Positions 9,179 to 62,922 of a stretch of 64,000 nt of DNA are shown in pieces. Each line of letters opens with the position of its first letter. Position 1 is the stretch's first letter. The notes beneath the pieces are model-generated. The model ran no database searches. It worked only from the letters and a program-made list of their open reading frames with translations, and had not been told where the DNA came from. The stretch comes from an uncultured Rhodocyclaceae bacterium (GTDB lineage Bacteria; Pseudomonadota; Gammaproteobacteria; Burkholderiales; Rhodocyclaceae). The DNA lies in NCBI GenBank assembly GCA_907163225.1, contig OU015322.1, forward strand, positions 930,001 to 994,000, written 5' to 3'. Both the position numbers and the translations under genes were made by a program.

Positions 9179-10282
9179 ATGGCTAATCCTCTTATCTATC
9201 TCGTTGCCGGTGCCCGGCCCAATTTCATGAAGATCGCCCCCATCGTGCGTGCCTTTCAGGTCCACGGCGGCATGGCTTTCAAGATCATTCACACCGGCCA
9301 GCATTACGACCGCGAAATGAACGATGTATTTTTTGAGGAACTCGGTATTCCTGCGCCGGATGTCTTCATGGCGGCTGGTGGCGGTAGCCATGCACAGCAG
9401 ACGGCCAAGATGATGGTGGCTTTCGAGGAGCTTTTCCAGTCGCAGCGGCCGGATGCGGTGCTGGTGGTTGGCGATGTGAATTCGACGCTGGCCTGCTCAA
9501 TTGTGGCCAAGAAGCTGAACATTCCGGTTGCTCACGTTGAGGCGGGTTTGCGCAGCGGCGACATGACGATGCCGGAAGAGATCAATCGTCTGGTGACGGA
9601 CGCCATTTCGGACTGGTTCTTTGTCACGGAGCCGAGCGGTGTCGAGCATCTGCGCCGCGAGGGCAAGGCCGAGTCGGCGATCCATTATGTCGGCCATGTG
9701 ATGGTCGATAACGTGCTTTATCAGGCTGAAAAGCTGAAGGATGTCGATCCTTCAACATTTGAAATTTCGGCAAAAATTCCGGTTGACCGCAGATATGGCG
9801 TGGTGACGCTGCATCGGCCGAGCAACGTCGATAGTGCCGCGATGATGGGGAAAATAGGCGGTGCGCTGCGCGAGATTGCGGCTGAATTGCCGCTGATCTT
9901 CCCGGTGCATCCGCGAACCCGTGCCAATCTGGAGAAATTCGGCGTCGATCTCGGGCCGAACATAACGCTGGCTGGCCCGCAGGCTTATATGGCTTTCCTG
10001 AGTTTGTGGAAGGATGCGGCCGTGGTGCTGACGGACAGCGGCGGCTTGCAAGAGGAAACGACGGCGCTCGGCGTGCCGTGCATCACGATTCGTGAGAACA
10101 CGGAGCGGCCGGTGACGGTGGATGAAGGCTCGAATGTGCTGGCGGGGACAGACCCGGTGCGCATTGTAGCTGAGGCGCGCAAGGTTCTGGCTGGCCAGGG
10201 CAAGCAGGGCCGCCGGCCGCACTTGTGGGATGGCAAGGCGGCGGAGCGAATCGTTGAGATTCTGGCCAGGGAACTTGCCTGA
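9179..10282 (+). CDS. wecB: UDP-N-acetylglucosamine 2-epimerase (non-hydrolysing), copy 1
   Basis: The product (367 aa) is a full-length WecB. It starts with 'VAGARPNFMKIAPIVRAF' (the GxRP-x-F/I-K signature) and carries 'HVEAGLRSGDMTMPEEINR', 'VHPRT' and 'LTDSGGLQEE'. It converts UDP-GlcNAc to UDP-ManNAc in the cytoplasm. The stop overlaps the ATG of the WecG/TagA gene (TGATG), so precursor supply and a ManNAc-type transferase are coupled. A second copy lies at 12707. Bases 9224-10002 are identical to 12746-13524, while the 3' part differs by synonymous changes. See the duplication entries. Confidence 0.95.
   Translation: MANPLIYLVAGARPNFMKIAPIVRAFQVHGGMAFKIIHTGQHYDREMNDVFFEELGIPAPDVFMAAGGGSHAQQTAKMMVAFEELFQSQRPDAVLVVGDVNSTLACSIVAKKLNIPVAHVEAGLRSGDMTMPEEINRLVTDAISDWFFVTEPSGVEHLRREGKAESAIHYVGHVMVDNVLYQAEKLKDVDPSTFEISAKIPVDRRYGVVTLHRPSNVDSAAMMGKIGGALREIAAELPLIFPVHPRTRANLEKFGVDLGPNITLAGPQAYMAFLSLWKDAAVVLTDSGGLQEETTALGVPCITIRENTERPVTVDEGSNVLAGTDPVRIVAEARKVLAGQGKQGRRPHLWDGKAAERIVEILARELA
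9224..10002 (+). repeat. Direct repeat A of the wecB duplication (779 identical bases)
   Basis: This block is identical to 12746-13524 by base-by-base reading, at an offset of 3522. Flanking bases on both sides differ (for example 9220, 9223 and 10003), which bounds the identical tract inside the gene. Confidence 0.93.
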
Positions 10283-11031
10283 TGAACAAACGCATTGAAA
10301 TGATGGGTTGCAAGATCGACAACCTGACAATGGAAGAAACCCTGCAGACGATTGAGGGTTTCATCCATAGCGGCAAGCCGCATCAGCATGTGGTGGTGAA
10401 TGTGGACAAGTTGGTGAAGGCCAGCCGTGACCCGGAGCTTTGCCAGATCATCAACGATTGCGCGCTGATCAACGCGGACGGTATGCCGGTGGTGTGGGCT
10501 TCGCGCCTGCTGGGCAAGGGGCTAAAGGAGCGCGTTGCTGGCGTCGATTTATTCGAGTCGTTGATGCAGCGCTCGGCCCAGAAGGGTTGGCGGGTTTTTC
10601 TACTCGGCGCTCGCGAGGAAGTGGTTTCTGGCGTCAGTACGATTTACCAGAAGAAATATCCGGGCCTGACCATTGCTGGTTACCGAAATGGCTACTGGAA
10701 GCCGGAAGAGGAAGCTGGGGTGGTCGAACAGGTGAAGGCTGCGCAGGCTGACTTGCTGTTCGTCGCCATCAGTTCGCCAAAGAAGGAACAGTTTCTCGGC
10801 AAGTATCAGGCGGAGATGAAGGTTCCCTTCGCCATGGGCGTTGGCGGAACCTTCGACGTTGCCGTCGGCAAGGTTAAACGGGCACCGGTCTGGATGCAGA
10901 ACAGCGGCCTGGAGTGGTTTTACCGATTTTTGCAGGAACCGCGCCGGATGTTCAGGCGGTATTTCATTGATGACATGGCTTTCTTCGGCTTGATGGCGAA
11001 GGAGTTGCTGGTTTCTGGAAAAAATAGATAA
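10282..11031 (+). CDS. WecG/TagA/CpsF family glycosyltransferase
   Basis: The product (249 aa) has the WecG/TagA/CpsF (GT26) landmarks: 'NADGMPVVWASRLLG', 'ERVAGVDLF', 'VFLLGAREEV', the PKKE motif in 'AISSPKKEQF', and a C-terminal 'NSGLEWFYRFLQEPRRMF'. Family members transfer ManNAc or ManNAcA from the UDP form to undecaprenyl-PP-GlcNAc. Coupling to wecB (TGATG overlap) fits use of UDP-ManNAc, and the dehydrogenase at 15508 could oxidise the donor first. Directly after the stop, in the same frame, lies a second degenerate copy of the C-terminal region (11032-11187). Confidence 0.92.
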   Translation: MNKRIEMMGCKIDNLTMEETLQTIEGFIHSGKPHQHVVVNVDKLVKASRDPELCQIINDCALINADGMPVVWASRLLGKGLKERVAGVDLFESLMQRSAQKGWRVFLLGAREEVVSGVSTIYQKKYPGLTIAGYRNGYWKPEEEAGVVEQVKAAQADLLFVAISSPKKEQFLGKYQAEMKVPFAMGVGGTFDVAVGKVKRAPVWMQNSGLEWFYRFLQEPRRMFRRYFIDDMAFFGLMAKELLVSGKNR

Positions 11032-11187
11032 CTCGCCCATGCGCACCCTTTAATGCGCAACAACGGGCTGGAATGCTTGCATCGACTGGCCTCAGAACCG
11101 CGCCGGCTGTGGAAGCGCTATCTGGTGACGAATACGCTGTTTGTTGTCGGCGCTATCAGGCAATTGGCGTTTGGCCAGACTCGATAG
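11032..11187 (+). pseudogene. Remnant of a second WecG/TagA 3' end
   Basis: Continuing in the same frame after the TAA of the upstream gene, the sequence translates as a further stretch ending at TAG 11185-11187. From ATG 11053 it reads MRNNGLECLHRLASEPRRLW and so on. This matches the terminal region of the intact protein (NSGLEWFYRFLQEPRRMFRR) but is diverged and only 44 codons long. It looks like the leftover 3' end of a neighbouring wecG-type gene after deletion or unequal exchange. A functional small protein is unlikely. Confidence 0.75.
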
Positions 11188-11226: not shown

Positions 11227-11249
11227 GCGGTCAACCGGAAATTTGTTCG
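11227..11249 (+). repeat. Dispersed GGTCAACCGG element (partial)
   Basis: This copy reads GCGGTCAACCGGAAATTTG then TTCG, matching the left half of the element. It is intergenic, between the WecG remnant and the terminator at 11290. The right half (GGCCAAAAA) is degenerate. Confidence 0.6.
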
Positions 11250-12706: not shown

Positions 12707-13807
12707 ATGAAAACAATCTATCTCGTTGCCGGTGCCCGGCCGAACTTCATGAAGATCGCCCCCATCGTGCGTGCCTTTCAGGTCCACGGCGGCATGGCTT
12801 TCAAGATCATTCACACCGGCCAGCATTACGACCGCGAAATGAACGATGTATTTTTTGAGGAACTCGGTATTCCTGCGCCGGATGTCTTCATGGCGGCTGG
12901 TGGCGGTAGCCATGCACAGCAGACGGCCAAGATGATGGTGGCTTTCGAGGAGCTTTTCCAGTCGCAGCGGCCGGATGCGGTGCTGGTGGTTGGCGATGTG
13001 AATTCGACGCTGGCCTGCTCAATTGTGGCCAAGAAGCTGAACATTCCGGTTGCTCACGTTGAGGCGGGTTTGCGCAGCGGCGACATGACGATGCCGGAAG
13101 AGATCAATCGTCTGGTGACGGACGCCATTTCGGACTGGTTCTTTGTCACGGAGCCGAGCGGTGTCGAGCATCTGCGCCGCGAGGGCAAGGCCGAGTCGGC
13201 GATCCATTATGTCGGCCATGTGATGGTCGATAACGTGCTTTATCAGGCTGAAAAGCTGAAGGATGTCGATCCTTCAACATTTGAAATTTCGGCAAAAATT
13301 CCGGTTGACCGCAGATATGGCGTGGTGACGCTGCATCGGCCGAGCAACGTCGATAGTGCCGCGATGATGGGGAAAATAGGCGGTGCGCTGCGCGAGATTG
13401 CGGCTGAATTGCCGCTGATCTTCCCGGTGCATCCGCGAACCCGTGCCAATCTGGAGAAATTCGGCGTCGATCTCGGGCCGAACATAACGCTGGCTGGCCC
13501 GCAGGCTTATATGGCTTTCCTGAGCTTGTGGAAAGATGCGGCTGTCGTGCTGACGGACAGCGGCGGCTTGCAGGAAGAAACGACGGCGCTTGGCGTGCCG
13601 TGCATCACGATCCGAGAGAACACGGAGCGCCCGGTGACGGTGGATGAAGGTTCCAACGTGCTGGCCGGGACTGACCCGGTGCGCATCGTGGCTGAGGCGC
13701 GCAAGGTTCTGGCTGGCCAGGGCAAGCAGGGCCGCCGGCCGCACTTGTGGGATGGCAAGGCGGCTGAACGGATTGTCGAGATTCTGGCTGCCGAGTTGGG
13801 CGCCTAA
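12707..13807 (+). CDS. wecB: UDP-N-acetylglucosamine 2-epimerase (non-hydrolysing), copy 2
   Basis: The 366-residue protein is nearly identical to the copy at 9179. It differs only at the N-terminus (MKTIYLV against MANPLIYLV) and the last residues (AAELGA against ARELA). All catalytic segments are kept, so both copies should be active. Bases 12746-13524 are identical to copy 1. After 13525 the two genes differ at many third positions without changing the protein. ATG 12707 is chosen because the homology starts there; the frame runs open to 12656. It is followed by manC after 79 bases, so it may serve the second half of the locus. Confidence 0.94.
   Translation: MKTIYLVAGARPNFMKIAPIVRAFQVHGGMAFKIIHTGQHYDREMNDVFFEELGIPAPDVFMAAGGGSHAQQTAKMMVAFEELFQSQRPDAVLVVGDVNSTLACSIVAKKLNIPVAHVEAGLRSGDMTMPEEINRLVTDAISDWFFVTEPSGVEHLRREGKAESAIHYVGHVMVDNVLYQAEKLKDVDPSTFEISAKIPVDRRYGVVTLHRPSNVDSAAMMGKIGGALREIAAELPLIFPVHPRTRANLEKFGVDLGPNITLAGPQAYMAFLSLWKDAAVVLTDSGGLQEETTALGVPCITIRENTERPVTVDEGSNVLAGTDPVRIVAEARKVLAGQGKQGRRPHLWDGKAAERIVEILAAELGA
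12746..13524 (+). repeat. Direct repeat B of the wecB duplication
   Basis: This block is identical to 9224-10002. The two direct repeats flank about 2.7 kb holding the wecG gene, its remnant, the terminator and fic. Recombination between them could delete that segment. Confidence 0.93.
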
Positions 13808-19519: not shown

Positions 19520-19541
19520 ACCGCCGAGGCTTGGCGCAGAA

Positions 19542-19991
19542 TTACAGTGTTTTTCCAGGTTGACCGCAGCCCGCCATCGGCATCAGCCCGCCAGGGGTGC
19601 GCAGCAGGTCGGCCAGCGTGTAGCCATCAAGGACGAGGAACATCGCCTTCAGCGCCTGGTTAAGAATTGCAGGCAAGCAACAGACGCCCTGAATCCGGCA
19701 AGTGGAATCCTCGGCAAAGCATTCGGCCAGCGCGAAGTCGCTTTCGGCATGCCGGATCACTTCACCGACGACAATATCCTGCGCCTCGCGGGCAAGCCTC
19801 AGGCCGCCCCCCTTGCCGCGCACGGTCTCGATGTAGCCGCTGCGCCCGAGTTGATGCACCACTTTCATCAAATGGCTTTTTGAAATTTCGTGGGCGGCAG
19901 CGATCTCGGCGATCGTTGCCAGCCGGCCTTTTTGCACGCCGAGGTACATCAGTACGCGCAAGTTGTAGTCGGAAAAGGCGCTCAGTCGCAT
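19542..19991 (-). CDS. nsrR: Rrf2-family nitric-oxide-sensing repressor NsrR
   Basis: The product (149 aa) has the Rrf2 winged helix: 'MRLSAFSDYNLRVLMYLG' at the N-terminus and a recognition region in 'EISKSHLMKVVHQLGRSGYI'. The wing 'VRGKGGGLRLA' follows, then three cysteines spaced C-x6-C-x5-C ('ECFAEDSTCRIQGVC') that bind the Fe-S cluster in NsrR. NO destroys the cluster and relieves repression. An NsrR-like palindrome lies 11 bases before its start codon, so it probably represses itself, and perhaps the divergent ccoG. IscR is less likely because its cysteine spacing differs. Confidence 0.9.
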   Translation of the reverse strand: MRLSAFSDYNLRVLMYLGVQKGRLATIAEIAAAHEISKSHLMKVVHQLGRSGYIETVRGKGGGLRLAREAQDIVVGEVIRHAESDFALAECFAEDSTCRIQGVCCLPAILNQALKAMFLVLDGYTLADLLRTPGGLMPMAGCGQPGKTL

Positions 19992-23257: not shown

Positions 23258-25576
23258 ATGAGTGAAATCGATCTGAAACGCTTCTTCCTTGAGCAGGTAC
23301 GCCTGTTCGAGAACTTTCCGGCCGACAAGGTCGAGGAAATCGTCATCAAGTCCCGCCTGGCGACTTATGAAGGCAACGAAGCCATCCTCGAAACCGGCGA
23401 CGAAGGCCGTTTCATCGGCGTCATGATCAGCGGCCACGCCGAGATATCGATGACTGACAACACCGGCTCCCGCGTCGTCATTACCCAACTCGGCGTTGGC
23501 GACGTGTTCGGTGTGATGTCGCTGCTCACCGGAGACCGCATCGTCGCCGACGTCATCGCCGGCAACCGCTGTTTCGTGCTGATGATTCCGCAGGACGTCT
23601 TCAACACGCACATCCTGACCAACCCGAAGGCCGTCGGCTACCTTTCCCGCCTGCTCGCCGATCGCACCCGCGCCATGTCGGTCGATCTGGTCACTGCCCA
23701 GGCCAATGCCGTCGCCCATTCGAGCGACCCCTACGCGCTGTCTCTGACCACCAACGAACCGGGCAAGGTCGTTGTCCTCAACGTCGGCATCACCCAGATT
23801 CATTTCGGCATCTACGACACCGAGGAAAGCGGCGCTGACATCCACGGCATCATCGACCACGCCGACCAGCTGGTCACGCTGATTACTGTCACGGTCGGGT
23901 CGCAGCAAAAAACCATAGAGCACTCGCCGTTCAAACTCTCTGACCTGTTCACCGTGATGCAGGAAGTCACCACCCTGCTCGGCAAGTCCTTCACCTTCCA
24001 TCCGGAAGACGTTACCGCCGTCGGCCATCGTGTCGTGCATGGCGGCAACAAGTTCTCCAGCTCGGTCGTCATCACACCGTCGGTGATCGCCGACATTGAG
24101 GAACTCTCGGTCTTCGCGCCGCTGCACAACCCGGTCAACGTCGCCGGCATCCGCGTTGCCATGAAGATGTTCCCTAACGTGCCGCAGGTTGCCGTTTTCG
24201 ACACCGCCTTCCACCAGACGCTGGCGCCCTACGCCTACCTCTACGGCCTGCCCTACGATCTTTACAAGCAGCACGGTATCCGCCGCTACGGCTTCCACGG
24301 CACCTCACACCGCTACGTTTCGCTGAAGTCAGCCGAAGTCCTGAAGCGCCCGCTCGGCGAGCTGGAAATCGTTTCCTGCCACCTCGGCATCGGCGCCTCG
24401 CTGTGCGCCATCGACCACGGCCGCTCGATCGACACGACGATGGGCATGACACCGAGCGACGGCCTGATCATGCCCAGCCGTTCTGGTAGCGTTGATCCTG
24501 CGGTGATGATCCACCTGATGGAAAAGCATCACATGTCGCCGGAACAGCTATCGACGCTGATCAACACTGAAAGCGGACTCAAGGGCATTTCAGGCATTTC
24601 CAGCGACATCCACGATATCGAGGAAGCCGCCGCCGATGGCCACCACCGCGCCCTGCTCGCCCACAAGGCCTACTGCTACCAGGTTCGCAAGAACATCGGC
24701 GCCTACGTCGCGGCGATGGGCGGCATCGATGTTCTCGCCTTCACCGGCGATGTCGGCGAAACCAGTGCTGCCGTGCGCAGCCTGGCCTGCCAGGGCCTCG
24801 GCTACATGGGCATCAAGCTGGACGAGGAAAAGAACCGCAACCTCACCCAGGTCAACTCCCACGCCATCATCTCCACCGACGATTCGCCGGTCACCATTTT
24901 GGTCGTCGCCAATGACGACGAGCGCTTGGTGGCCTGGGAAACGCTGCGTTCCATCGAGCGCAACCAGTTGCTGTTGGCCGCCAAGGCCGAAGATGCGCCG
25001 ATCCCGGTCGAAATCTCCGCCCACCACGTCCATCTGTCGCAGGCCGATGTCGAAAAACTGTTTGGCCCCGGCCACCAGCTGACGCCGGAACACGAACTGT
25101 CACAGCCCGGCCAGTTCGCCTGCGCCGAAAAAGTCCATCTGGTCGGCCCCAAAGGCCGCATCGCCAACGTCCGCGTGCTCGGCCCGACCCGCAAGGAAAC
25201 CCAGGTCGAAATCGCCATGACCGAACAGTTCAAGGTCGGCATCCAGCCACCAATCCGCGAATCCGGCGACCTCGCCGGCACGCCCGGCATGACGCTGGAA
25301 GGCCCGTACGGCACGTCGGTCATCGAACGCGGCGTGATCTGCGCCCAGCGCCACATCCACATGACGCCGGAAGACGCCATGCGCTTCCATGTCCGCGACA
25401 AATACGTAGTCCGCGTCCGCATCGAAGGCGAGCGCCAGCTCGTCTTCGGCGACGTCGTCGTCCGCGTCAATCCAGGCTATCGCCTGGCCATGCACATCGA
25501 CACCGACGAAGGCAACGCCGGCAACATCCAGACCGGCATGCTAGGCTACATCGAGGAAATCCAGAACCGGCATTGA
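23258..25576 (+). CDS. Fusion of cNMP-binding domain, acetate kinase-like domain and PduL phosphotransacylase
   Basis: Three domains are read in one frame of 772 aa. Residues 10-130 are a cyclic-nucleotide-binding fold ('LETGDEGRFIGVMISGHAE', 'GVGDVFGVMSLLTGDRIVADV'). Residues 170-565 are an acetate/propionate kinase (R258 in 'GHRVVHGG', H290, 'VFDTAFHQ', 'RRYGFHGTSHRY', R408, E501). Residues 583-760 are a complete PduL ('HHVHLS', 'AQRHIHMTPEDA', 'MHIDTDEGNA'). PduL swaps CoA for phosphate and the kinase makes ATP from the acyl phosphate. The kinase has unusual changes: NVGITQIH for NxGSSSxK, HLGIG for HLGNG, FTGDVGET for FTGGIGEN. Kinase activity is therefore uncertain. Transcription is single-gene, and AAGGG precedes ATG 23258. 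Confidence 0.9.
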   Translation: MSEIDLKRFFLEQVRLFENFPADKVEEIVIKSRLATYEGNEAILETGDEGRFIGVMISGHAEISMTDNTGSRVVITQLGVGDVFGVMSLLTGDRIVADVIAGNRCFVLMIPQDVFNTHILTNPKAVGYLSRLLADRTRAMSVDLVTAQANAVAHSSDPYALSLTTNEPGKVVVLNVGITQIHFGIYDTEESGADIHGIIDHADQLVTLITVTVGSQQKTIEHSPFKLSDLFTVMQEVTTLLGKSFTFHPEDVTAVGHRVVHGGNKFSSSVVITPSVIADIEELSVFAPLHNPVNVAGIRVAMKMFPNVPQVAVFDTAFHQTLAPYAYLYGLPYDLYKQHGIRRYGFHGTSHRYVSLKSAEVLKRPLGELEIVSCHLGIGASLCAIDHGRSIDTTMGMTPSDGLIMPSRSGSVDPAVMIHLMEKHHMSPEQLSTLINTESGLKGISGISSDIHDIEEAAADGHHRALLAHKAYCYQVRKNIGAYVAAMGGIDVLAFTGDVGETSAAVRSLACQGLGYMGIKLDEEKNRNLTQVNSHAIISTDDSPVTILVVANDDERLVAWETLRSIERNQLLLAAKAEDAPIPVEISAHHVHLSQADVEKLFGPGHQLTPEHELSQPGQFACAEKVHLVGPKGRIANVRVLGPTRKETQVEIAMTEQFKVGIQPPIRESGDLAGTPGMTLEGPYGTSVIERGVICAQRHIHMTPEDAMRFHVRDKYVVRVRIEGERQLVFGDVVVRVNPGYRLAMHIDTDEGNAGNIQTGMLGYIEEIQNRH

Positions 25577-28216: not shown

Positions 28217-28893
28217 CCGCCGATTGCCCGCATGCGCTCAACCAGCCAGCGGCCAATGGCTTGCACTTCTTCCAGACAGACCGAATGCGGCATCGGGTAA
28301 TCGTTCCATTCGATGGCGTAACCGCGCTCGGCCAGAAGATTGCGCGCCGCCATCCCGAGTTGGGGTGACACCACGTCGTCAAACGTGCCGTGCGCTGCAA
28401 AGATCGGCGTGGCGCGGTTGGGGGCGGCAGACTTTTCGGTCAGCAGGCCCGGCGAGGGAATGTAGGTGGAGAGCGCGATGACGCCGGCCAGTGTTTCCGG
28501 GTGCGTCAGCGCCGTGGTGTAGGCGACCGCCCCGCCCTGCGAGAAGCCGGCGAGAAAGATACGGTCAACCGGAATTTCGCGGCTTTTTTCAAGTTCGATC
28601 AGCCCGCGAATCGTCTCGCGCGAGGCGACGATGCCCGACTCGTCGATGCGGCGACTGTTCGGCTCCAGCGAAATGATGTCGTACCACGCGCGCATGACGT
28701 AACCGCCGTTGCAAGTCACCGGCATGTGGGGCGCGTGGGGGAAGATGAAGCGGACGCCCGGTGCTTTGGGCAGCCCGAGTTCAGGCACGACGGGCACGAA
28801 ATCGGAACCGTCGGCGCCCAGGCCGTGCAGCCAGATCACCGCAAATTTCGGGTCAGCCGAGGTTTCGACTTCAAGGGGCAGTTGGTCTTCCAA
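28213..28893 (-). CDS. Carboxylesterase/phospholipase of the alpha/beta hydrolase 2 family
   Basis: The 226-residue protein is a small cytoplasmic alpha/beta hydrolase. The oxyanion strand is 'AVIWLHGLGADGSDF', the nucleophile elbow GFSQGG has Ser118, the acid is in 'HGTFDDVV' (Asp173) and the base is His203 in 'YPMPHSVCLEE'. This is the pattern of Pseudomonas carboxylesterase II and acyl-protein thioesterases. Short acyl esters are the expected substrates. No signal peptide is present. It is followed on the same strand, upstream in position, by the cyanophycinase-like gene 64 bases away; whether they share a promoter is unclear. Confidence 0.88.
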   Translation of the reverse strand: MEDQLPLEVETSADPKFAVIWLHGLGADGSDFVPVVPELGLPKAPGVRFIFPHAPHMPVTCNGGYVMRAWYDIISLEPNSRRIDESGIVASRETIRGLIELEKSREIPVDRIFLAGFSQGGAVAYTTALTHPETLAGVIALSTYIPSPGLLTEKSAAPNRATPIFAAHGTFDDVVSPQLGMAARNLLAERGYAIEWNDYPMPHSVCLEEVQAIGRWLVERMRAIGG

Positions 28894-41607: not shown

Positions 41608-41620
41608 GAGGCACGACATC

Positions 41621-43099: not shown

Positions 43100-43179
43100 G
43101 AAGACATGACCGACATTTTCAGCAGCTTATGACTTGACGCATACTTCAAGAAGTTGAACATCCACTCAGGAGCAAAGTG

Positions 43180-46622: not shown

Positions 46623-46672
46623 ATCAGGGCAACTTAACGGTATGTTTTTGAACATATTTTAAGGGGATTAAA

Positions 46673-48418
46673 ATGACAATTTGCCATCCGATGACATTTC
46701 CTCCTGCTCGCAGATATATCGGTAGTAAAAAACGAACTTGGTGTATATCTGTTGCATGCTCCTCCTCAGCTTTGATGTTTATCTTGGCAATTGCCGGGTG
46801 TGCTAACGCACCACCGCCGGATATAAAACGGCTTCGATATGCCGAAGAAGTAGTTGGCACGAATCGAGAAGAACTTCAATGGAATTTTCATTCAATCCTT
46901 GAGTACACGAGCAGCGACAACGATTTTGCACCTCCGAATATAGGTTCGGGCACAAACAATGGCAAAACCGATTTCTGCACCATTGCAAAATATATACAAA
47001 ATGCGGTCACCGATGAAAAACCGGTAGAAATCCGAGGATTGGGGCTTCAGTTTCCAGGCTATCTCATCGGCATCGAAAAGGCACAACGCGAAATTTTGGG
47101 CCTCTCCGAAGGAGCATTTTCTGAATGCAACGACACTGTAGCGAACACTATCTTCAGGCAGTCCTTTTTGAATCCATTCCTTCTGGAAACCCAAACCGAA
47201 GAGAGTGTCTGTTTCATGAAACGCAGGTTGGATGATGGCTTACGCACTTTTTTATCTCACATCGTTGCATTTCGGAGTAATACTCGCGGAGCTCTCCCAA
47301 GAGTAACAGGATCGTTGCTCTACAACGTCTATACCCAAAGCGATTTGCTTTGTAATGTGCAAGAGGCGAAAACCAGCGGTCGTCCAGTTACCTACGAAAA
47401 AGGAATATTCCGCAACGGCCATGAAGGAGGGCTTCAAACGCTCAAGGCATCACTTAAAAACGATTTGGAAAATGGAAAGAATTTGGGGACGCCGTATTCC
47501 CACATCTTTGTATATGTTATGGGATGGAACACCGCACAAGCGGAATCTATCGAGAATTTCAATAATCTCTTCGGCTACATGCTCGATGCCGCTGAGAAGG
47601 ACAATAGTTTCAAGCCCCTTATTTTGGGCATTTCCTGGCCTTCCGCTTGGTCATTTGGCACAAGCCCTTGGGATGACTTCATACGCGGAGTCAGTCTCTG
47701 GAACAAAAAAAATGACGCCGACGAACTCGGCGCCACTTGGAGCAACTACCTTCTAAACGACGTCATTGCAAACATAAAACTTGAATACCCATCGCTTCGG
47801 GTCGTTCTTATCGGACATAGTTTTGGAGCGCGTGTCGCGACCAGGACGCTCTACAGCTGTAACCTGTTGCCTCAGCCAAAATCTTGCAGCAACACGATAG
47901 ATCTTGTTATCGGACTGCAGTCTGCTTTCGGCCGCAGCCGCTTCGGCAATGGTGTCGCACCAACATGGCAGGAATCGTTTCCCTTCCTTCCGTTACATCA
48001 TGAAGGCATGCCTTTTACTGACTTTTCCGGTATTGGCCAGTTTTCCGCCCAACAGGCCTATCTATGGTCCCGCTACGATAGCGCGACCTCGCTAACCGCC
48101 ATGATGGGCGGAGCCAATGCGATTGAACATACGTTGGACAGAAGCGATGTCTTCACACATTTACCGGACAATAAATACGTTCCAGGGGAAATCCCTCACT
48201 CAGATGACCTGATTAAGTCTGTCCAAAACTTCAATCCAGAAACTTCCAAAAAAACGGCTCTTCTTATGGACGGTTCAGGAATCGTTCGGCATGACACGCC
48301 ATATCACGGAGGGGGCTCCCATAGCGATATATATACTCGCGAAATCGGGAGACTCACTTGGGAGCTTGTCAAAAAATTTGCGCCAGCACGGCTACCCAAG
48401 GAAGGTGGTGCCAAGTAA
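46673..48418 (+). CDS. Lipoprotein alpha/beta hydrolase
   Basis: The product (581 aa) has a long basic N-region followed by a hydrophobic core and the lipobox 'LAIAGC' (Cys43), so it should be a lipoprotein. The hydrolase nucleophile elbow is GHSFG, Ser383, after 'LRVVLI'. A possible base His is in 'YHGGGSHSDIYTR' near the C-terminus. The region before ('FVYVMGWNTAQAESIENF', 'LILGISWPSAWSF') fits DUF900-like or esterase/lipase folds with a GWN loop near the oxyanion hole. It follows the patatin gene by 50 bases with similar base composition. Substrate unknown; an ester or lipid is likely. Confidence 0.82.
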   Translation: MTICHPMTFPPARRYIGSKKRTWCISVACSSSALMFILAIAGCANAPPPDIKRLRYAEEVVGTNREELQWNFHSILEYTSSDNDFAPPNIGSGTNNGKTDFCTIAKYIQNAVTDEKPVEIRGLGLQFPGYLIGIEKAQREILGLSEGAFSECNDTVANTIFRQSFLNPFLLETQTEESVCFMKRRLDDGLRTFLSHIVAFRSNTRGALPRVTGSLLYNVYTQSDLLCNVQEAKTSGRPVTYEKGIFRNGHEGGLQTLKASLKNDLENGKNLGTPYSHIFVYVMGWNTAQAESIENFNNLFGYMLDAAEKDNSFKPLILGISWPSAWSFGTSPWDDFIRGVSLWNKKNDADELGATWSNYLLNDVIANIKLEYPSLRVVLIGHSFGARVATRTLYSCNLLPQPKSCSNTIDLVIGLQSAFGRSRFGNGVAPTWQESFPFLPLHHEGMPFTDFSGIGQFSAQQAYLWSRYDSATSLTAMMGGANAIEHTLDRSDVFTHLPDNKYVPGEIPHSDDLIKSVQNFNPETSKKTALLMDGSGIVRHDTPYHGGGSHSDIYTREIGRLTWELVKKFAPARLPKEGGAK

Positions 48419-48570
48419 AAGCAAGGCCAAGGTAGCTAACATTTGTCACGAAAGAAAATAGGACCTAAAGCCCGCATCCCTAGCTCGCCTCTAGCCTTCA
48501 GACACCCAGCCAACGAGACAATTTCAACACCGCAACCGCTCAACAAAAACTCACAAATGAGGTAATCATT

Positions 48571-49632
48571 GTGCTCCACCAGAGACAGCTGCTGTCAGTA
48601 AAAATCAGTATAGGTGTACTTTTAGCGGTTTTGGCCGGCCTGAGCGGATGCTCGATAGTCAACCCACATGGCACTATGGGAGAGAAAGGGCAAGTGTGGT
48701 GCAATGAACGATACAGAGACCGCGTATTTTGGGATGAGGCAACCAAGAAAGCCTCGCTCACAGGATACATGTACGGACTAGCGGCAGCCTTAGTTTTACA
48801 GTCCGATGACCCCAGCGACAAGGAGGCCCAAGCACACTATTTCCGTCAGCCAGACCGCCTCGAAGTATTGGATCGGCCACCTAGATCAGAGTCTGGGTTC
48901 GAAGTCACCACATTCAGACTAAGACCACTAGTTGACGAGAAACAGGAAGAAATTGTCATCGCTTTCGCCGGATCAAATGACAGGAGTGATTGGTTGAGCA
49001 CGAATCTCAATCCATTTGGTCGGGAACAGTACGATGAAGCAGTTGCCTATACCAAAAAAATCTTAGCAAATCCAAACGTACAAGGTAAAAAGCTTGTGCT
49101 CACAGGTATTTCCCTCGGAGGTGGACTCGTTGTTCACGTGATAAAGAACGCCGAGCTGGAACCTTTTATCGACCAAGCATGGGCTTTAAATCCGAGCCCC
49201 AAAATTTTTTCCCCCAAACCCGCTAGCGACAGGATGAAAAGCAAGACCTGGCTAGGGTATACAGAGGGAGAAGTTCTCTCTCAGTTCAGATCTGACGGGC
49301 TACGGCAGCTTATTCCAGGAGCCGGCGACATTGAGGTTGCCAATGGCCAAAAAGCAGTGTTCAAACTTATCGAAGCAAACCAGATCTACGCACACTTCCG
49401 TTGGGGAATCGCCAGGCAAATGCTATGGATTGCGGATTTTGAACTAACGAGAAAAAAGAAAAATGCTTGGACAGAGCCCTTTGCAATTTTGCAGGACAGC
49501 GCATTTCGTTCATGCCTTGGCGAGCGCCCGAAGTACAAAATTGATCCCGAACTACAACCGACAGGGCCGCGCCCCGACTATTCAGGATCGAAGTCCGCAT
49601 CCCAGCGTGCTCCGTTCGCCAACGCCAATTGA
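48571..49632 (+). CDS. Lipoprotein with lipase class 3-like hydrolase domain
   Basis: The product (353 aa) starts at GTG 48571, with GAGG eight bases upstream. Its signal 'GVLLAVLAGLSGC' ends in a lipobox with Cys27. The domain has 'IVIAFAGSNDRSDWLSTNL' (the FxGT-like oxyanion strand of class 3 lipases) and the nucleophile elbow GISLGG, Ser181. The C-terminal 40 residues are polar and proline-rich. With the patatin and the GHSFG lipoprotein it makes three different serine lipid/ester hydrolases in a row, all placed at the membrane or beyond. A 152-base gap separates it from the previous gene. Confidence 0.82.
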   Translation: MLHQRQLLSVKISIGVLLAVLAGLSGCSIVNPHGTMGEKGQVWCNERYRDRVFWDEATKKASLTGYMYGLAAALVLQSDDPSDKEAQAHYFRQPDRLEVLDRPPRSESGFEVTTFRLRPLVDEKQEEIVIAFAGSNDRSDWLSTNLNPFGREQYDEAVAYTKKILANPNVQGKKLVLTGISLGGGLVVHVIKNAELEPFIDQAWALNPSPKIFSPKPASDRMKSKTWLGYTEGEVLSQFRSDGLRQLIPGAGDIEVANGQKAVFKLIEANQIYAHFRWGIARQMLWIADFELTRKKKNAWTEPFAILQDSAFRSCLGERPKYKIDPELQPTGPRPDYSGSKSASQRAPFANAN

Positions 49633-49769
49633 ACGTAATATTTATCTACGGATTATTAATTGAGGTTAGCCGGCTTGCTGGTGTCGATAGTTCCCCTGCT
49701 TACCCGCCGATTGAGCGGGGCTGGCGGATTAGCGGGTTTGCTGGTTTTTCGGCCTCATAAGGGGAGGCA

Positions 49770-50660
49770 ATGACCGACATATTCCTGAGTTACAACGAGA
49801 AGGATCGAGAGCAGGCGCGGCGCGTTGCCTTGATGCTGGAATCGGTCGGCTGGACGGTGTGGTGGGATCGGCGTATTCCTGCTGGCGAAACCTGGCGCAG
49901 CGTGCTGGAAGATGCGCTTGAAAACATGCGCTGCATGATTGTGCTTTGGTCGTCGCATTCCATCGAAAGCGAGTGGGTTTACGAGGAAGCGACCGAGGGG
50001 CGGCGACTGGGCAAGCTCATCCCCATCATGATCGAAGCTGTCCGCCCTCCCGCTGGCTTCCGCGAGATTCAGGCGGCTGACCTGACCAACTGGGATGGCT
50101 CGCGCGAGTTTGAAGGAATGCGCATGTTGCTGGCCGATCTTGAAAATTTCCTGGGAAAGCCGGCGGCGAAGGCGCTTGAGGCCAAGCCAGTCGAGGAAAC
50201 GAGGAAAACAAAGGAAGAAGCAGCCCCCGCTTGGTGGCAAGGCCGGGCGTTCGCATCGCTGGCAGTGGCGGGTGTCGTTCTACTGGCGGGCGGCGCAGCC
50301 TATCTTGGCTTGTCGCCAAAGCCGCCGGCCGTTGTTGCGCCAGAAGTAAAGAAGGCCGTACCGCCTGTACTGCAGGAAGCCACCCGGAAACCTCCGCCTG
50401 CCGAATACCCGCCTCCCGCCACGTCGCCAGTGGCCGAAGCGCAGCCGCCCAAACCTGCACCCAAACCCGCCCCCCCGGTTGCCACCGAACCGGCGCCAGC
50501 CATCAAGCGCCCGGCAACGGCGGTGAAGCCCGTTAGCCAGCCGGCTGAAAGACCTTCACCGACCAGCGCGCGCTGCGCCGATCTTCTCGCCCGAACCCAG
50601 TTGGGCGAGTCGCTTTCCGAGAAAACCCAGTCGTACTACGACAAGGAATGCCGACAATGA
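49770..50660 (+). CDS. TIR-domain protein with one membrane segment
   Basis: The product (296 aa) has an N-terminal TIR domain (about 1-130): 'DIFLSYNEKDREQARRVALM', 'WWDRRIPAGETW', 'MIVLWSSHSIESEWVYEEA', where Glu73 lines up with the NADase glutamate of SARM1-type TIRs. A membrane helix ('FASLAVAGVVLLAGGAAYLG') follows near 161-180, and then a Pro/Ala/Lys-rich tail of about 100 residues that would lie in the periplasm. NAD-cleaving activity is possible but not proven by sequence; scaffold TIRs exist. Its stop overlaps the OmpA-like gene (ATGA), so the two are translationally coupled. Base composition is G+C-rich, unlike the lipase genes before it. Confidence 0.88.
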   Translation: MTDIFLSYNEKDREQARRVALMLESVGWTVWWDRRIPAGETWRSVLEDALENMRCMIVLWSSHSIESEWVYEEATEGRRLGKLIPIMIEAVRPPAGFREIQAADLTNWDGSREFEGMRMLLADLENFLGKPAAKALEAKPVEETRKTKEEAAPAWWQGRAFASLAVAGVVLLAGGAAYLGLSPKPPAVVAPEVKKAVPPVLQEATRKPPPAEYPPPATSPVAEAQPPKPAPKPAPPVATEPAPAIKRPATAVKPVSQPAERPSPTSARCADLLARTQLGESLSEKTQSYYDKECRQ

Positions 50661-51922
50661 CCGCCATTTTCCGCAAGGCAGGAACAACGAAACTCTGGAT
50701 GGCACTGCTTTCAGTGTCGCTGCTGGCTACGGGTTGCGAAAGCCTCACCGGCGCTTCGTCAGCCCCGACCGCGCCAGCAGCAGGCGTCGCCCAAGCCGCA
50801 TCGCCGCCCGCCCCTCCACCCGTCCAGCCCTACGACAAGGCGGTCTTGAGCGCGGCAACGGCGCTCTTCAACAATGCCAAACTGCCCGCCGAGGGAAGCC
50901 CGCGTCAGGAGAAGTACACCGTCGTCATCGATCCGCTGATCGACGGCATGACCGGGGAACAATCGGTCACCACGCGCTCGATGGGGCAGCGACTGACGAC
51001 GATGATGCGCGAGCAGTATCCGCAGTTCGACGTCAAAGCGTTTTCGGCGGCCAACGTGGCCAAGAGCCCGCTCGTGCTGATTGGCACTTTCACAGGGGTC
51101 AACGCCGAGCGCAAGACCAGCGGCCCGCGCGAGTCCTACCGTATCTGCCTGGCGCTAGCCGATTTGCGCAGCGGCAAGCTGGTCAGCAAGGGCCTGGCCT
51201 TCGCCTTGCCTGCCGGCGTCGATCCGACACCGCTGGCTTTCTTCCGCGATGCACCGGCGTGGTCGTCCGATCCGGCCACCGAGGGCTATATCAAGACCTG
51301 CCAGGGCACCAAGGCCGGCGATCCGATCAATCCGCTTTATCTTGATCGCATCATCGCTGCCTCGCTGGTCGCTGAGGCCATCGACGCCTACGATGCCGGC
51401 CGCTATCAGGATTCGCTTGAGCTTTACCAGAACGCCCGGGCGATGCCGGCCGGAAATCAGTTCCGTGTCTTGAATGGCATCTACCTGGCCAACTGGAAGC
51501 TCGGCCATCAGCAACAGGCGGAAGCCGCCTTCAGCAAAATCGTCGATTTCGGCCTTGAACAAAAGCGGCTGGCGGTCAAATTCCTGTTCCGGCCCGGATC
51601 GACCGCCTTCGTTCAGGATACGAAACTGAGCGGCCCCTATCCACTCTGGCTGAAAACCATCGCGCGCCAAACATCGGGCGTCGGCAGTTGCCTGGAAGTC
51701 ACCGGCCATACCAGCCCGACCGGCCCCGAGCCATTGAACGAACGTCTGTCGCTGTTGCGCGCGGAATATGTGAAAACGAAGCTGGCGGGCGCCTCTCCAG
51801 TACTCGCCAAGCGGATGATCGCCAATGGCGTCGGGTCGCGACAAACCATGGTCGGTACCGGCCGTGACGATGCCAGCGATGCGCTTGATCGCCGGGTCGA
51901 ATTCAAGGTCATCGGCTGCTGA
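50657..51922 (+). CDS. OmpA-family lipoprotein partner of the TIR protein
   Basis: ATG 50657 has AAGGA nine bases upstream and overlaps the TIR stop. The product (421 aa) has a lipobox 'LLATGC', a middle domain with 'YTVVIDPLIDGMTGEQSV' (a pattern seen in FlgO/CsgG-like lipoproteins), a TPR-like stretch ('YDAGRYQDSLELYQNARAMP') and a C-terminal OmpA domain. That domain carries 'VTGHTSPTGPEPLNERLSLL' and 'DALDRRVEF', the peptidoglycan-binding pattern. It would sit in the outer membrane bound to the wall and could meet the periplasmic Pro-rich tail of the TIR protein. An envelope-sensing pair is my inference. Confidence 0.86.
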   Translation: MTAIFRKAGTTKLWMALLSVSLLATGCESLTGASSAPTAPAAGVAQAASPPAPPPVQPYDKAVLSAATALFNNAKLPAEGSPRQEKYTVVIDPLIDGMTGEQSVTTRSMGQRLTTMMREQYPQFDVKAFSAANVAKSPLVLIGTFTGVNAERKTSGPRESYRICLALADLRSGKLVSKGLAFALPAGVDPTPLAFFRDAPAWSSDPATEGYIKTCQGTKAGDPINPLYLDRIIAASLVAEAIDAYDAGRYQDSLELYQNARAMPAGNQFRVLNGIYLANWKLGHQQQAEAAFSKIVDFGLEQKRLAVKFLFRPGSTAFVQDTKLSGPYPLWLKTIARQTSGVGSCLEVTGHTSPTGPEPLNERLSLLRAEYVKTKLAGASPVLAKRMIANGVGSRQTMVGTGRDDASDALDRRVEFKVIGC

Positions 51923-52055
51923 TGTGTTTCTGAATCCTATTGCTGACGCGGAGGCGTCACCCGAACATTTCGCCGTTTATTGACTCTAACTGCCATAGCT
52001 TGGTGAATTCGGCCCGCGAGCCAAAGGCACATCTGCGGAGCAAAAGGATGGCGAA

Positions 52056-53444
52056 ATGAAGCGGCTTGAGAAGGATTCGTTCGGCAGCATCGAAGTGGCG
52101 GCTGTTCGCCTGTGGGGCGCGCAGACCCAGCGCTCGCTGGAGCACTTTGCGATCTCCAGCGAACGCATGCCGGATGAGCTGATCCACGCCCTGTCCATGA
52201 TCAAGGCGGCTTGCGCCAAAGTCAATCAGGCGTTGGCCCTGCTGCCCTCCGACGTCGCAGGGGCAATCATCCGCGCCGCCGAAGAAATTTGCGACGGCCA
52301 GCTCGCCGACGAATTCCCGCTCGCGGTCTGGCAGACCGGCTCCGGAACGCAAACCAACATGAACTTGAACGAGGTGCTGGCTAACCGCGCCTCAGAGCTG
52401 CTCGGCGGCCAACGCGGCAACGCCCGCCTCGTTCATCCCAACGACCAGGTCAATCTCGGTCAGTCTTCCAACGATATCTTTCCGACGGCCATGCACGTCG
52501 CTGCGGTCATCGGCATCGAGCGCAAGCTCCTGCCGGCAATTCGGCTACTGACCGCCACGCTGGAAGAGAAATCGACCGAGTTTGCCGACATCATCAAGAT
52601 CGGCCGCACGCATTTGCAGGATGCGACGCCGCTGTCGCTCGGTCAGGAATTCTCCGGCTATGTCACCCAGTTGCAGCACGCCGAAGCGCTGGTCGCTGCC
52701 AGCCTGTCATCGCTCTTTCCGCTGGCCGTCGGCGGCACTGCGGTAGGAACCGGGCTGAACACGCATCCGGAATTCGGCCAGCGTGTGGCGGCGGAGTTGG
52801 CCGCGCGCAGCGGCCTTCCGTTCACCAGTGCTGCCAACAAATTCGCCGCGCTGGCCGCGCATGATGGTCTGGTTGCCGCGCACGGTGCGCTGAAAACCCT
52901 GGCCGTGGCACTGATGAAAATCGCCAACGACATCCGCTGGCTGGCCTCCGGCCCGCGCTCGGGGCTGGGAGAAATCGGCATTCCGGAAAACGAGCCGGGC
53001 AGTTCGATCATGCCCGGCAAGGTCAACCCGACCCAATGCGAAGCGCTGACCATGCTCTGTTGCCAGGTGATGGGCAACGACGTGACGATCGGCATTGCCG
53101 GTGCCGCCGGAAATTTTGAACTCAATGTGTTCAAACCGGTAATCGCCCACAACTTCCTGCAAAGCGTGCGCCTGCTGACTGACGGGATGTTGAGTTTCGA
53201 CCGCCACTGCGTACAAGGCATCAGCGCCCGGCACGAACGCATCGGCGAATTGATGGAACGCTCGCTGATGCTGGTCACCGCGCTGACGCCGCACATCGGC
53301 TACGACAAGGCCGCCGAGATCGCCAAGCTGGCGAACAAGGAAGGGACGACCTTGAAGCAGGCCGCCATCGCCTTGGCCCATGTTTCGGCGGAAGACTACG
53401 ATCGATGGGTGGTTCCGGCCGATATGATTCATCCGGCCGGCTGA
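52056..53444 (+). CDS. fumC: Fumarate hydratase, class II
   Basis: The product (462 aa) is a full-length FumC. It has '[20 protein letters not shown]', '[20 protein letters not shown]', '[17 protein letters not shown]' and the superfamily signature '[17 protein letters not shown]'. It interconverts fumarate and malate in the citric acid cycle without an iron-sulfur cluster, so it works under oxidative stress. Aspartase is excluded by the 'PKVNPTQCE' context and length. AAGGA lies eight bases before ATG 52056. It stands alone between the TIR/OmpA pair and cysD. Confidence 0.94.
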
Positions 53445-53501
53445 TCGGAAATCAGCCTGCTTTCAGGCCTTCTGCGACCATAGAAGCAACGGCTGGCCCC
53501 A

Positions 53502-55901: not shown

Positions 55902-55913
55902 ACACGCTTGCTA

Positions 55914-61083: not shown

Positions 61084-61160
61084 CGACAACGCACCAGGAA
61101 AGCTCCTTACGTCACGGAGGCGGTCGCACAAAGCGCCGAATATGCTTTGGAGAATAAAGC

Positions 61161-61922: not shown

Positions 61923-61929
61923 TCCTTCG

Positions 61930-62922
61930 ATGCACCACAAGCCACAGCTGGCCGGTATCGGCTACGGCCTGCTCGCCTACGTCATCTGGGGCTGCTTCCC
62001 CATCTATTTCCGGCAACTGGCCGACATTTCGCCGATGGACATCCTGTCCAACCGCACCGCCTGGGCCTTCGTGTTCGTGACCGCACTGCTCACACTGCGC
62101 CGACGCTGGGACAAGGTGACCTCCATGTTCCGCAACCCTCGTCATCTGGTTCGCCTGAGCATCGCGGCGCTGCTACTCGGCAGCAACTGGCTGGGTTTCC
62201 TCTGGGCGCTCAACCAGCATCAAGTCGTCGCCGCCAGCCTCGGTTACTTCCTGACACCGCTGGTCAATGTGCTGCTTGCCCTGCTGGTACTAAAGGAAAA
62301 GCTCAACCGCAAGGAATGGCTGGCCATCGCGCTGGCCGCGGCCGCAGTTTTCAACGAACTGTTCACCCTAGGCACGCTGCCCTGGATATCCCTCTTCCTA
62401 GCCGGCACCTTCGGCCTCTATGGCCTGCTGCGCAAACAGGTGCCGGTCGATGCCATTTCCGGCCTGTGGCTGGAAACACTGGCCATGCTGCCCATCTGCC
62501 TGATCTACACCGCTTGGCAAGTGGAAAACGGACACCATGTTTTTGGCCATTTTTCCGGGTTGACCGCAGGAAATGACCTTGGCGCCATGGTACCCGCCTT
62601 GCTGATCGGCTCCGGCATCATGACCGCCGTGCCGCTGATGGCCTTCGCCGCCGCCACGCAACGCCTGGATCTGGCCACCGTCGGCATGCTGATGTACATC
62701 AACCCGACCATGCAATTCCTGACCGCCATCTTCCTCTTCGACGAACCGCTGCAACCGGCCCGATTGGTCAGCTTTGCCCTGATCTGGCTAGGCCTGCTGA
62801 TTTTCAGTTGGAGCATCTGGGAGAAGGTAAAAGGAAAGCAAAGCGTTGCTCCTTCCGCGCCCCTAGAATCAATGGCAGATCCCTCGGTCAACTCTGAAAG
62901 CACCCCGGAAACAAAAACCTGA
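61930..62922 (+). CDS. rarD: RarD-type EamA transporter
   Basis: The product (330 aa) has ten hydrophobic segments of the EamA/DMT fold. The RarD landmarks are 'GLLAYVIWGCFPIYFRQL', 'LGSNWLGFLWALNQHQVVAA' and 'SLGYFLTPLVNVLLALLVL'. 'QFLTAIFLFDEPL' lies near the end. The protein is an inner-membrane exporter or permease of unknown substrate, first named from chloramphenicol sensitivity. A dispersed-element copy lies inside the gene and encodes part of a polar loop, 'HVFGHFSGLTAGN', between membrane segments. The C-terminal 30 residues are polar and variable. Confidence 0.92.
   Translation: MHHKPQLAGIGYGLLAYVIWGCFPIYFRQLADISPMDILSNRTAWAFVFVTALLTLRRRWDKVTSMFRNPRHLVRLSIAALLLGSNWLGFLWALNQHQVVAASLGYFLTPLVNVLLALLVLKEKLNRKEWLAIALAAAAVFNELFTLGTLPWISLFLAGTFGLYGLLRKQVPVDAISGLWLETLAMLPICLIYTAWQVENGHHVFGHFSGLTAGNDLGAMVPALLIGSGIMTAVPLMAFAAATQRLDLATVGMLMYINPTMQFLTAIFLFDEPLQPARLVSFALIWLGLLIFSWSIWEKVKGKQSVAPSAPLESMADPSVNSESTPETKT
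62540..62567 (-). repeat. Dispersed GGTCAACCGG element inside rarD
   Basis: On the minus strand it reads GCGGTCAACCCGGAAAAAT then GGCCAAAAA. It is almost a full consensus copy, with one extra C, and stays in frame in rarD. Confidence 0.75.

What the first reader, a model, noticed from the sequence alone, without database searches (positions are those of the whole stretch)
9766..62567. A dispersed ~28-base element recurs across the window, in gaps and in genes
The pattern GCGGTCAACCGGAAAAA, two or three variable bases, then GGCCAAAAATG occurs as good copies at 21566, 53502, 55914 (GGTCGACCGG variant), 59521 and 62540 (minus). Partial or diverged copies are at 11227, 30263 (minus), 34105, 38255, 41041 (minus), 9766/13288 (minus, in both wecB copies) and 19547 (minus, end of nsrR). 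That is about 12 sites in 64 kb, far more than chance for a core of ten fixed bases plus a conserved right half. Both orientations occur. Several copies lie between convergent genes next to terminators. Others are kept in frame inside genes as VDR or PVDR. It is not a classic REP palindrome. Ideas: a DNA uptake-like sequence, a binding site for a chromosome-structuring protein, or a mobile miniature repeat.
Basis: seen in the sequence. Interest (0 to 1): 0.82.

Follow-up and report, generated by a model that had tools for sequence, protein, structure and literature searches.

The report
Likely DNA-uptake tags in Dechloromonas relatives
About a thousand copies of a roughly 38-base DNA tag are scattered through this bacterium's genome, and they look like the self-recognition tags that some bacteria use to choose which DNA to take up, a kind so far described in only two other bacterial families.

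Summary
The repeat is real, longer and far more abundant than reported. A 15-base core occurs 209 times in the 3.46 Mb genome against 0 for the reversed control. A matrix finds 144 copies in 464 kb and 0 in two controls, about 1,075 per genome. It is a fixed core (CGGTCRAC) plus A/T tracts about 11 bp apart. It is abundant in 44 of 76 genomes of one genus (Azonexus/Dechloromonas), in dialects, and rare in the rest of the family. At the sites compared it arose by point mutation, not insertion. It is absent from four inserts in comEC. Best explanation: a DNA-uptake sequence, built like the Pasteurellaceae USS, in a third family. A pilus-type locus outside the window tracks it: a protein there has a long extension in 39 of 42 element-rich against 4 of 28 poor genomes, and one close relative lacking the element lacks that gene and the adjacent pilin at the locus. 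Uptake is untested; the receptor link is correlative, with little phylogenetic correction.

The parts
6195..6232 (+). element, 37.8 bits, outside the genes called
   Evidence: matrix hit and gene calls
9757..9794 (-). element inside the first wecB-like gene, 44.3 bits
11223..11260 (+). element, intergenic, 39.3 bits
13279..13316 (-). element inside the second wecB-like gene, same sequence as the copy at 9757
19534..19571 (-). degenerate element at the 3' end of an Rrf2-family gene, 22.1 bits
21561..21598 (+). element, intergenic, 39.8 bits
27355..27392 (-). element inside an OvoA-like gene, in frame; orthologous site compared across the genus and beyond
28557..28594 (+). element inside an Abhydrolase_2 gene, 26.8 bits
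30258..30295 (-). element, intergenic, 43.2 bits
34100..34137 (+). element, intergenic, 43.8 bits
38251..38288 (+). element in frame inside a gene, 46.6 bits
41034..41071 (-). element inside a RoxA-like cytochrome gene, 38.4 bits
53497..53534 (+). element, intergenic, 33.9 bits
55909..55946 (+). element, intergenic, GGTCGACC core, 45.9 bits
59517..59554 (+). best-scoring element of the window, intergenic, 49.9 bits
62534..62571 (-). element inside an EamA-family gene, 39.3 bits
62880..62917 (+). weak candidate inside the same gene, 16.6 bits

Best explanation
The element is a DNA-uptake (self-recognition) sequence. Shown: about 1,075 copies; a fixed core (CGGTCRAC) followed by A/T tracts one and two helical turns downstream; many more perfect than singly mismatched cores; origin by point mutation at the sites compared; dialects and near-absence within one genus; absence from DNA inserted in comEC. 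Inferred: in competent cells a pilus-type fibre carries a minor pilin that grips the core, the A/T tracts let the DNA bend or kink so it can be pulled through the outer membrane, and ComEC brings one strand in. Homologous recombination of preferentially imported tagged DNA then slowly enriches the tag (uptake-biased drive). Leading candidate for the recognition machinery: a locus outside the window (own genome C1, about 2.896-2.9075 Mb) with a GspE-like ATPase, a GspF-like protein, further pilus-type genes, an 879-aa protein with a GspK/PilX-like start and a long extension, and an orphan prepilin.
For: Abundance and controls. Architecture, core plus A/T tracts centred about 11 bp apart; the Pasteurellaceae USS has a GCGGT-containing core, AT segment 2, and AT segment 3 centred 12 positions further in the Hin type (PMC1626085, passages). 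Strong consensus: sites chosen by their tracts alone include 92 perfect cores and 7 with one mismatch, the anomaly PMC1626085 describes for USS and DUS. Point mutation: OvoA site; wider set. Dialects. Genus-restricted. Absent from comEC inserts: 0 in 166 kb against 34 in 160 kb of flanks. Intergenic density three times genic (0.63 against 0.20 per kb) with 80 of 147 copies still inside genes, and fewer neighbours under 1 kb than random (18.5% against 29%, P 0.0015), both in line with USS/DUS as described in PMC1626085. comEC matched in 75 of 76 genus genomes, 68 over the family's cut-off. Tracking locus: of 47 prepilin groups, one is in 5 of 5 rich and 0 of 5 poor genomes; the long extension is matched in 39 of 42 rich against 4 of 28 poor, Fisher 1.3e-11, six genomes without a match left out; G218, which lacks the element at all 19 query copies aligned to it (flank identity 0.86), keeps the neighbouring genes but lacks both the long gene and the pilin at that locus.
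Against: No uptake, binding or transformation was measured. Presence of comEC, or of a ComP_DUS-family minor pilin (70 of 76 genomes), does not separate element-rich from element-poor genomes. Overall spacing CV does not differ from random (P 0.30). The extension is net acidic in all nine proteins computed, so it may not itself touch DNA. The link between locus and element is correlative and was found after searching 47 groups: independent pairs are too few for a test (of 4 pairs on average 2.6 go the same way, 0.0 the other way, 1.4 do not differ, for the pilin form: 2.0 of 2 same way on the neighbour tree, and on the OvoA tree 1.6 same, 0.1 other, 1.4 no difference of 3), and the parsimony cost on the pilin tree (3) is close to that on a neighbour gene's tree (4). 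Counter-examples: G241, G252, G266 and G200 have the long form with 11-33 hits; G112, G242 and G254 are rich by the capped count without a listed match to the extension. G242 (10% contaminated) has 1 element in 40 kb of sampled flanks and G112 is sparse in sampled DNA (17 cores in 68 kb, against 7 reversed).
Confidence: 0.75

Rival explanations
1. The element is a binding site for an intracellular DNA-organising, segregation or global regulatory protein (nucleoid-associated protein, macrodomain or partition factor). The near-palindromic CGGTYRACCG core would bind a dimer.
For: The core is nearly palindromic (sequence); exact copies are spread along the chromosome in both orientations; point-mutation origin and absence from acquired inserts would also be expected.
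Against: The conserved flanks are one-sided, A/T tracts on one side only. Perfect cores far outnumber single mismatches, unlike ordinary protein sites (contrast drawn in PMC1626085). The element is gone in a close relative (G218: 0 of 19 aligned query copies kept), and presence tracks a pilus-type locus.
Confidence: 0.15
2. A miniature mobile repeat (MITE- or REP-like) spread by transposition.
For: High copy number and strong consensus are typical of young mobile repeats (point made in PMC1626085).
Against: In 187 aligned pairs where the relative lacks it the longest gap is 19 columns and 131 have none. Leaving out the OvoA site, 13 of 25 have none. The logo shows nothing conserved beyond about -9 and +31. 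80 of 147 copies lie inside called genes.
Confidence: 0.02
3. A by-product of composition, codon bias or protein demand.
For: 40 of 47 same-strand genic copies share one reading frame.
Against: 0 hits of at least 12 bits in Markov and reversed controls; 59 of 147 copies are intergenic and 8 more partly so; genic copies use both strands and all frames.
Confidence: 0.02
4. An oriented recombination or segregation signal (Chi-like or KOPS-like) or a transcription terminator.
For: The copy at 55909 is followed by a hairpin-like inverted repeat (sequence); one overlapping inverted pair exists at own-genome C1:820-841.
Against: Exact copies are balanced by strand (102/107) and mixed within most stretches; only 2 neighbouring pairs lie within 150 bp in 504 kb, one of them inverted; 80 of 147 copies lie inside genes.
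Confidence: 0.04

Closest known systems
Uptake signal sequence (USS) of Pasteurellaceae (Hin and Apl types)
   Same: Core with AT segments about one and two helical turns on one side; GCGGTC also occurs in the commonest Apl 10-mer (PMC1626085, passages); about a thousand copies; perfect cores outnumber mismatched; point-mutation origin; dialects and losses in a family.
   Different: Different host group (Azonexus/Dechloromonas, Betaproteobacteria); core extends to CGGTCRACCGG, tracts mainly A, and a third A patch; about 0.3 per kb against close to 1 per kb for USS; no uptake data; candidate locus not the predicted ComN/PpdA (PMC12616744, abstract), though homology to ComN was not tested beyond family scans.
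DNA uptake sequence (DUS) of Neisseriaceae with ComP
   Same: Abundant, both strands, dialects, type IV pilus context; a ComP_DUS-family (PF16732) minor pilin is present.
   Different: No GCCGTCTGAA; AT tracts present, none in DUS; the PF16732 pilin does not track the element.
REP/BIME, Correia/MITE repeats
   Same: Dispersed, hundreds of copies.
   Different: No insertion footprint at the sites compared; frequent inside genes (repeat classes recalled, not searched).

Membership tests
Uptake sequence (USS/DUS, functional class) | Short motif strongly over-represented, both strands, genes and gaps | tested here: met
Uptake sequence (USS/DUS, functional class) | Perfect copies outnumber singly mismatched ones | tested here: met
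   92 to 7 among tract-selected sites
Uptake sequence (USS/DUS, functional class) | Arises by point mutation, not insertion | tested here: met
   for the sites compared
Uptake sequence (USS/DUS, functional class) | Depleted in mobile DNA | tested here: met
   0 in 166 kb of four comEC inserts against 34 in 160 kb of flanks; prophages and plasmids not tested
Uptake sequence (USS/DUS, functional class) | Host has competence machinery | tested here: inconclusive
   comEC matched in 75 of 76 genomes (68 over cut-off; the match without cut-off also rings in 12 of 14 control genomes) and prepilins in 10 of 10 searched; comEA and dprA not tested; competence not known
Uptake sequence (USS/DUS, functional class) | Promotes preferential uptake of DNA | not testable with these tools
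   needs uptake assay
Pasteurellaceae USS | Core AAGTGCGGT or ACAAGCGGT | tested here: not met
   fixed core is CGGTCRAC; only GCGGTC is shared with the Apl 10-mer
Pasteurellaceae USS | Two AT segments at helical spacing on one side | tested here: met
Neisseriaceae DUS | GCCGTCTGAA-type 10-mer with CTG core | tested here: not met
   logo; definition from PMC1626085 and PMC3630211 (passages)
Neisseriaceae DUS | ComP-type receptor matching presence of the element | tested here: not met
   PF16732 pilin in rich and poor genomes alike
Mobile miniature repeat | Insertion footprint in orthologous empty sites | tested here: not met
   longest gap 19 columns in 187 pairs

The most novel reading that the evidence does not exclude
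A third, independently evolved DNA-uptake self-recognition system, in Azonexus/Dechloromonas betaproteobacteria, that converged on the Pasteurellaceae tag architecture. Its specificity is set not by ComP or ComN but by a dedicated pilus-type locus, through a GspK/PilX-like protein with an extension of roughly 470-620 aa plus a partner prepilin. Loss or swap of that module is followed by decay of about a thousand genomic tags, and mobile elements repeatedly insert into comEC in the same genus.
Probability: 0.4. Interest if true: 0.9.

Novelty: new variant of a known kind. Interest (0 to 1): 0.82.

Why it matters
Uptake sequences are described in only two families, Pasteurellaceae and Neisseriaceae (passages of PMC7811141 and PMC1626085), which PMC7811141 discusses as mainly mucosal. 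A third case in bacteria of water and sediment (habitat from my own knowledge) would test whether such tags need a host-DNA-rich habitat. It gives many natural gains, losses and dialects in one genus, and it points to a specific locus as the recognition machinery. The USS receptor of Haemophilus is still only predicted (PMC12616744, abstract), so a parallel system would help. Practically, it may suggest how to transform Dechloromonas and Azonexus.

Tried and rejected
Rejected: a literal fixed-spacer pattern (0 hits; wrong spacer). REP, MITE, Chi/KOPS, terminator and composition readings (see rivals). comEC presence as the explanation of presence or absence. The PF16732 ComP_DUS minor pilin as receptor: present in rich and poor genomes. 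The GspH minor pilin: present in 69 of 76. Pilin-tree correlation alone: suggestive (of 54 genomes with a sequence, 33 of 37 rich in one clade against 5 of 17 poor, Fisher 2e-5), but a neighbour gene's tree gives nearly as few changes (3 against 4 on 29 shared genomes), so I do not rest on it. Two hundred and five tract-selected sites without the core looked like a second class; 96 lie at true elements (shifted hits) and the logo of all 205 shows no other core. Spacing CV: no difference. No structure was predicted: the candidate proteins come from genome-fetch loci, which the predictor's stated rule does not list, so I did not submit them. A PDB sequence search with the long protein gave one weak match (E 0.0036, a designed beta-trefoil, residues 784-840), with the pilin none; not used.

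Limits. Some stretches of G147, G199, G204, G112 and G201 and of G177 were chosen at known core hits, so their densities are biased upward. G242 is 10% contaminated. In one search a fifth insert, 20 kb of the one in element-poor G251, also had 0 elements and is not in the total. Gene calls are from my own script, which% of bases as coding. Of 187 absent pairs, 162 are the single OvoA site; the 19 pairs with G218 are query copies from several relatives, so fewer distinct places, which I did not count; some named loci may be the same genome as a handle. In one search, 147 of the 148 prepilin hits were used (one weak G251 hit left out). Dropped rows: G237's pilin, lost by my trimming script (15 aa left), although its frame is open, and neighbour-gene rows under 300 aa; pilin rows were cut to their last 245 residues. 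In one search six genomes without a match were left out of the Fisher table: G218, and five that are 70-91% complete. The rows were typed by hand into. The listing stops near E 2e-16, so weaker C-terminal matches count as short: G254 (first 408 residues matched, 676-aa frame) and G203, whose last 105 residues do match a long form weakly. G218 also has a distant pilin (36% identity) at another locus.
Full report
What was checked. The core GGTCAACCGG with up to one mismatch occurs 19 times in the window against 4.98 expected. In the whole 3.46 Mb genome GGTCRACCGGAAAAA occurs 209 times (102 forward, 107 reverse) and its reversed control 0 times. I took 20 stretches of 20 kb plus the window (464 kb) and built a weight matrix by iteration. 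It has 144 hits of at least 12 bits, 0 in an order-3 Markov copy and 0 in the reversed sequence, which scales to about 1,075 copies, one per 3.2 kb.

Anatomy. Numbering from the first G of GGTC, the consensus is T(-6) n C Y R C | GGTC(A, less often G)AC | CGG | AAAAW w | n GGCC | AAAWTT | g AAA t. CGGTC-R-AC is almost invariant. The A/T tracts are centred about 11 bp apart, so they sit on one face of the helix. Little is conserved beyond about -9 and +31. When sites are chosen by their tracts only, 92 have a perfect CGGTCRAC, 7 have one mismatch and 1 has two; the other 209 chosen sites have three or more, against 67 sites in the reversed control, none with fewer than two. Core and tracts are therefore one unit with an unusually strong consensus.

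Where it sits. In 504 kb with script-made gene calls, 80 of 147 elements (at least 16 bits) lie inside genes, 59 between genes and 8 across borders; density is 0.63 per kb in gaps and 0.20 per kb in genes. Neighbours closer than 1 kb are rarer than random (18.5% against 29%, P 0.0015), while the spacing CV is not different (P 0.30).

How it arises. The copy in the window's OvoA-like gene (27355-27392) was compared with orthologues in 29 other genus genomes and with the named loci. Most align without gaps (118 of 162 absent pairs at this site), and the element appears by scattered substitutions, for example CGCGGTCGACCGCCTGATCCGC against CACGGTCGACCGGATAATTCGC. Across 79 query copies from seven related genomes or loci there were 339 alignments with at least 70% flank identity: 150 where the relative has the element, 187 where it lacks it, 2 between. 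The longest gap in the 187 is 19 columns. As 162 of them are the OvoA site, the other 25 matter most: 13 without any gap, flank identity 0.855, element identity 0.568. Nineteen of these are with one complete genome, G218, which keeps none of the 19 aligned copies. Insertion of a mobile repeat is excluded for these sites.

Who has it. A sequence-only model from 116 gapless sites of nine genomes was run over 76 genus genomes, scoring at most 88 candidates each: 44 genomes have 48 or more hits and 32 have 33 or fewer. In 297 family genomes scored at up to 22 candidates, 24 have a match: 12 of the genus (11 with 15-22 hits, one with 1) and 12 outside it, each with 1-3. Of 80 named OvoA loci, 9 hold the 30 hits of at least 16 bits, and all 9 are named Azonexus, Azonexaceae, Dechloromonas or, once, only Betaproteobacteria; there is 1 hit in the reversed control. 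G177's contig length (115,558) equals SSXW01000010.1 (Dechloromonas sp. Dech2017) and G227's (122,021) equals JAABQV010000010.1 (Dechloromonas sp. S06.Bin117). Dialects exist: ACGGTCAACC (G210, G244, G245), RCGGTCGACC (G177), TTTCACGGTCGACCG (G147), and genomes rich in the core with weaker or different tracts (G201, G202, G237, G204). In sampled DNA of five poor genomes the core CGGTCRAC equals its reversed control (63 to 66); in eight rich ones it is 597 to 247; G112 has 17 to 7.

Mobile DNA. comEC is split by long gaps in several genomes. Four of these inserts (G244, G230, G207, G242; 166 kb) hold 0 elements, while 160 kb of immediate flanks hold 34; without G242 it is 0 in 125.5 kb against 33 in 120 kb. 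Of ten frames from the inserts given to Pfam, G230's include a serine recombinase and G207's and G242's a TniB-like ATPase; G244's showed a DNA methylase and kinase-type proteins but no recombinase, so its mobile nature rests on the interrupted gene and its lower GC.

What recognises it. Having comEC or a ComP_DUS (PF16732) minor pilin does not separate rich from poor. I collected 147 of the 148 prepilin hits in five rich and five poor genomes and clustered them into 47 groups. Exactly one group was present in 5 of 5 rich and 0 of 5 poor; at the same locus four of the five poor genomes have a diverged form, 41-43% identical to the own pilin. That locus (own genome, outside the window) reads: GspE-like ATPase, GspF-like protein (PF00482), 502-, 200- and 123-aa proteins, an 879-aa protein with a GspK/PilX-like start (my reading of the sequence; no family matched it), the pilin, a nucleotide cyclase (PF00211), a 560-aa protein and another prepilin. 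The resemblance to MSHA-type pilus operons is recalled, not tested. The first 285 or so residues of the 879-aa protein match widely, including poor genomes and other families; the part beyond residue 600 is matched in the listing in 39 of 42 rich and 4 of 28 poor genomes (six genomes without a match left out). The four poor genomes with the long form have 11, 20, 24 and 33 hits, the other poor ones with a match, and G218, 0-23 (P 0.004). In G218 the 200-aa, 123-aa and cyclase genes remain at 72-90% identity but nothing at the locus matches the long gene or the pilin. On the OvoA tree the rich/poor label needs 8 changes for 30 genomes (shuffles 9.1 on average, 147 of 500 as low), so it is scattered rather than one clade. 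Independent pairs mostly go the same way, but there are too few for a test.

Mechanism and its status. Shown: abundance, anatomy, point-mutation origin, dialects, absence in relatives and from inserts, and correlation with a pilus-type locus. Inferred: the tag is read outside the cell during DNA uptake, the A/T tracts help the DNA kink through the outer membrane (as proposed for USS in PMC7811141, passages), and biased import plus recombination maintains the copies. Weakest step: whether the long protein, the pilin or another partner touches the DNA; the extension is net acidic in nine of nine proteins computed.

Comparison with known systems. The nearest is the Pasteurellaceae USS: GCGGT core, two AT segments at helical spacing, about a thousand copies, mutation origin, subclade types, apparent loss in H. 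ducreyi (PMC1626085, passages). It works like a USS but is not one: the core differs and the host is a betaproteobacterium. Neisseriaceae DUS lie in the same class but have no AT tracts and a different core (PMC1626085, PMC3630211, passages). I saw no report of such a sequence in this group in searches. These showed listings only (three gave 0 papers; 20 of 29, 25 of 27, 15 of 141 and 15 of 411 papers were listed in the others), in an open-access library that misses many subscription papers.

Noticed in passing
comEC of G199, G206, G207, G218, G230, G242, G244, G246, G251, G267, G268: comEC is split or broken in at least 11 of 76 genus genomes: gaps of 20-64 kb in eight, 2-5 kb in two, a frame break in G218, often at profile positions about 146-166 or 590, and by unrelated elements (serine recombinase, TniB-type). 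MGE disruption of competence genes is known (PMC11472951, passages).
   Followed up: partly
window 9194-9493 and 12716-13015: Two wecB-like genes 3.5 kb apart with a 99% identical 300-nt stretch, each carrying the same element copy.
   Followed up: no
window 41072-53496: No element of at least 16 bits over 12 kb, including the stretch where GC falls to 46% (44-48 kb); possibly acquired DNA.
   Followed up: no
window 45911-45970: Short tandem repeat of CAAAGA units inside a long open frame.
   Followed up: no
window 23258-25576: One 772-aa frame joins a cyclic-nucleotide-binding domain, acetate kinase and phosphate propanoyltransferase (PTAC), an unusual fusion to my knowledge.
   Followed up: no
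own genome C1:803-858 (L031): Two elements overlap head to head, sharing CCGGTCGACCGG and forming a perfect palindrome of about 30 bp with A/T tracts on both sides.
   Followed up: no
L101-L103, G147: Several copies of G147's dialect read TTCACGGTCGACCGTGAA, a full palindrome, unlike the one-sided tags of its relatives.
   Followed up: partly
own genome C1 2.896-2.9075 Mb (L295, L393): The candidate recognition locus includes a nucleotide cyclase gene (PF00211) next to the pilin; cAMP control of competence is known in other bacteria (recalled).
   Followed up: no
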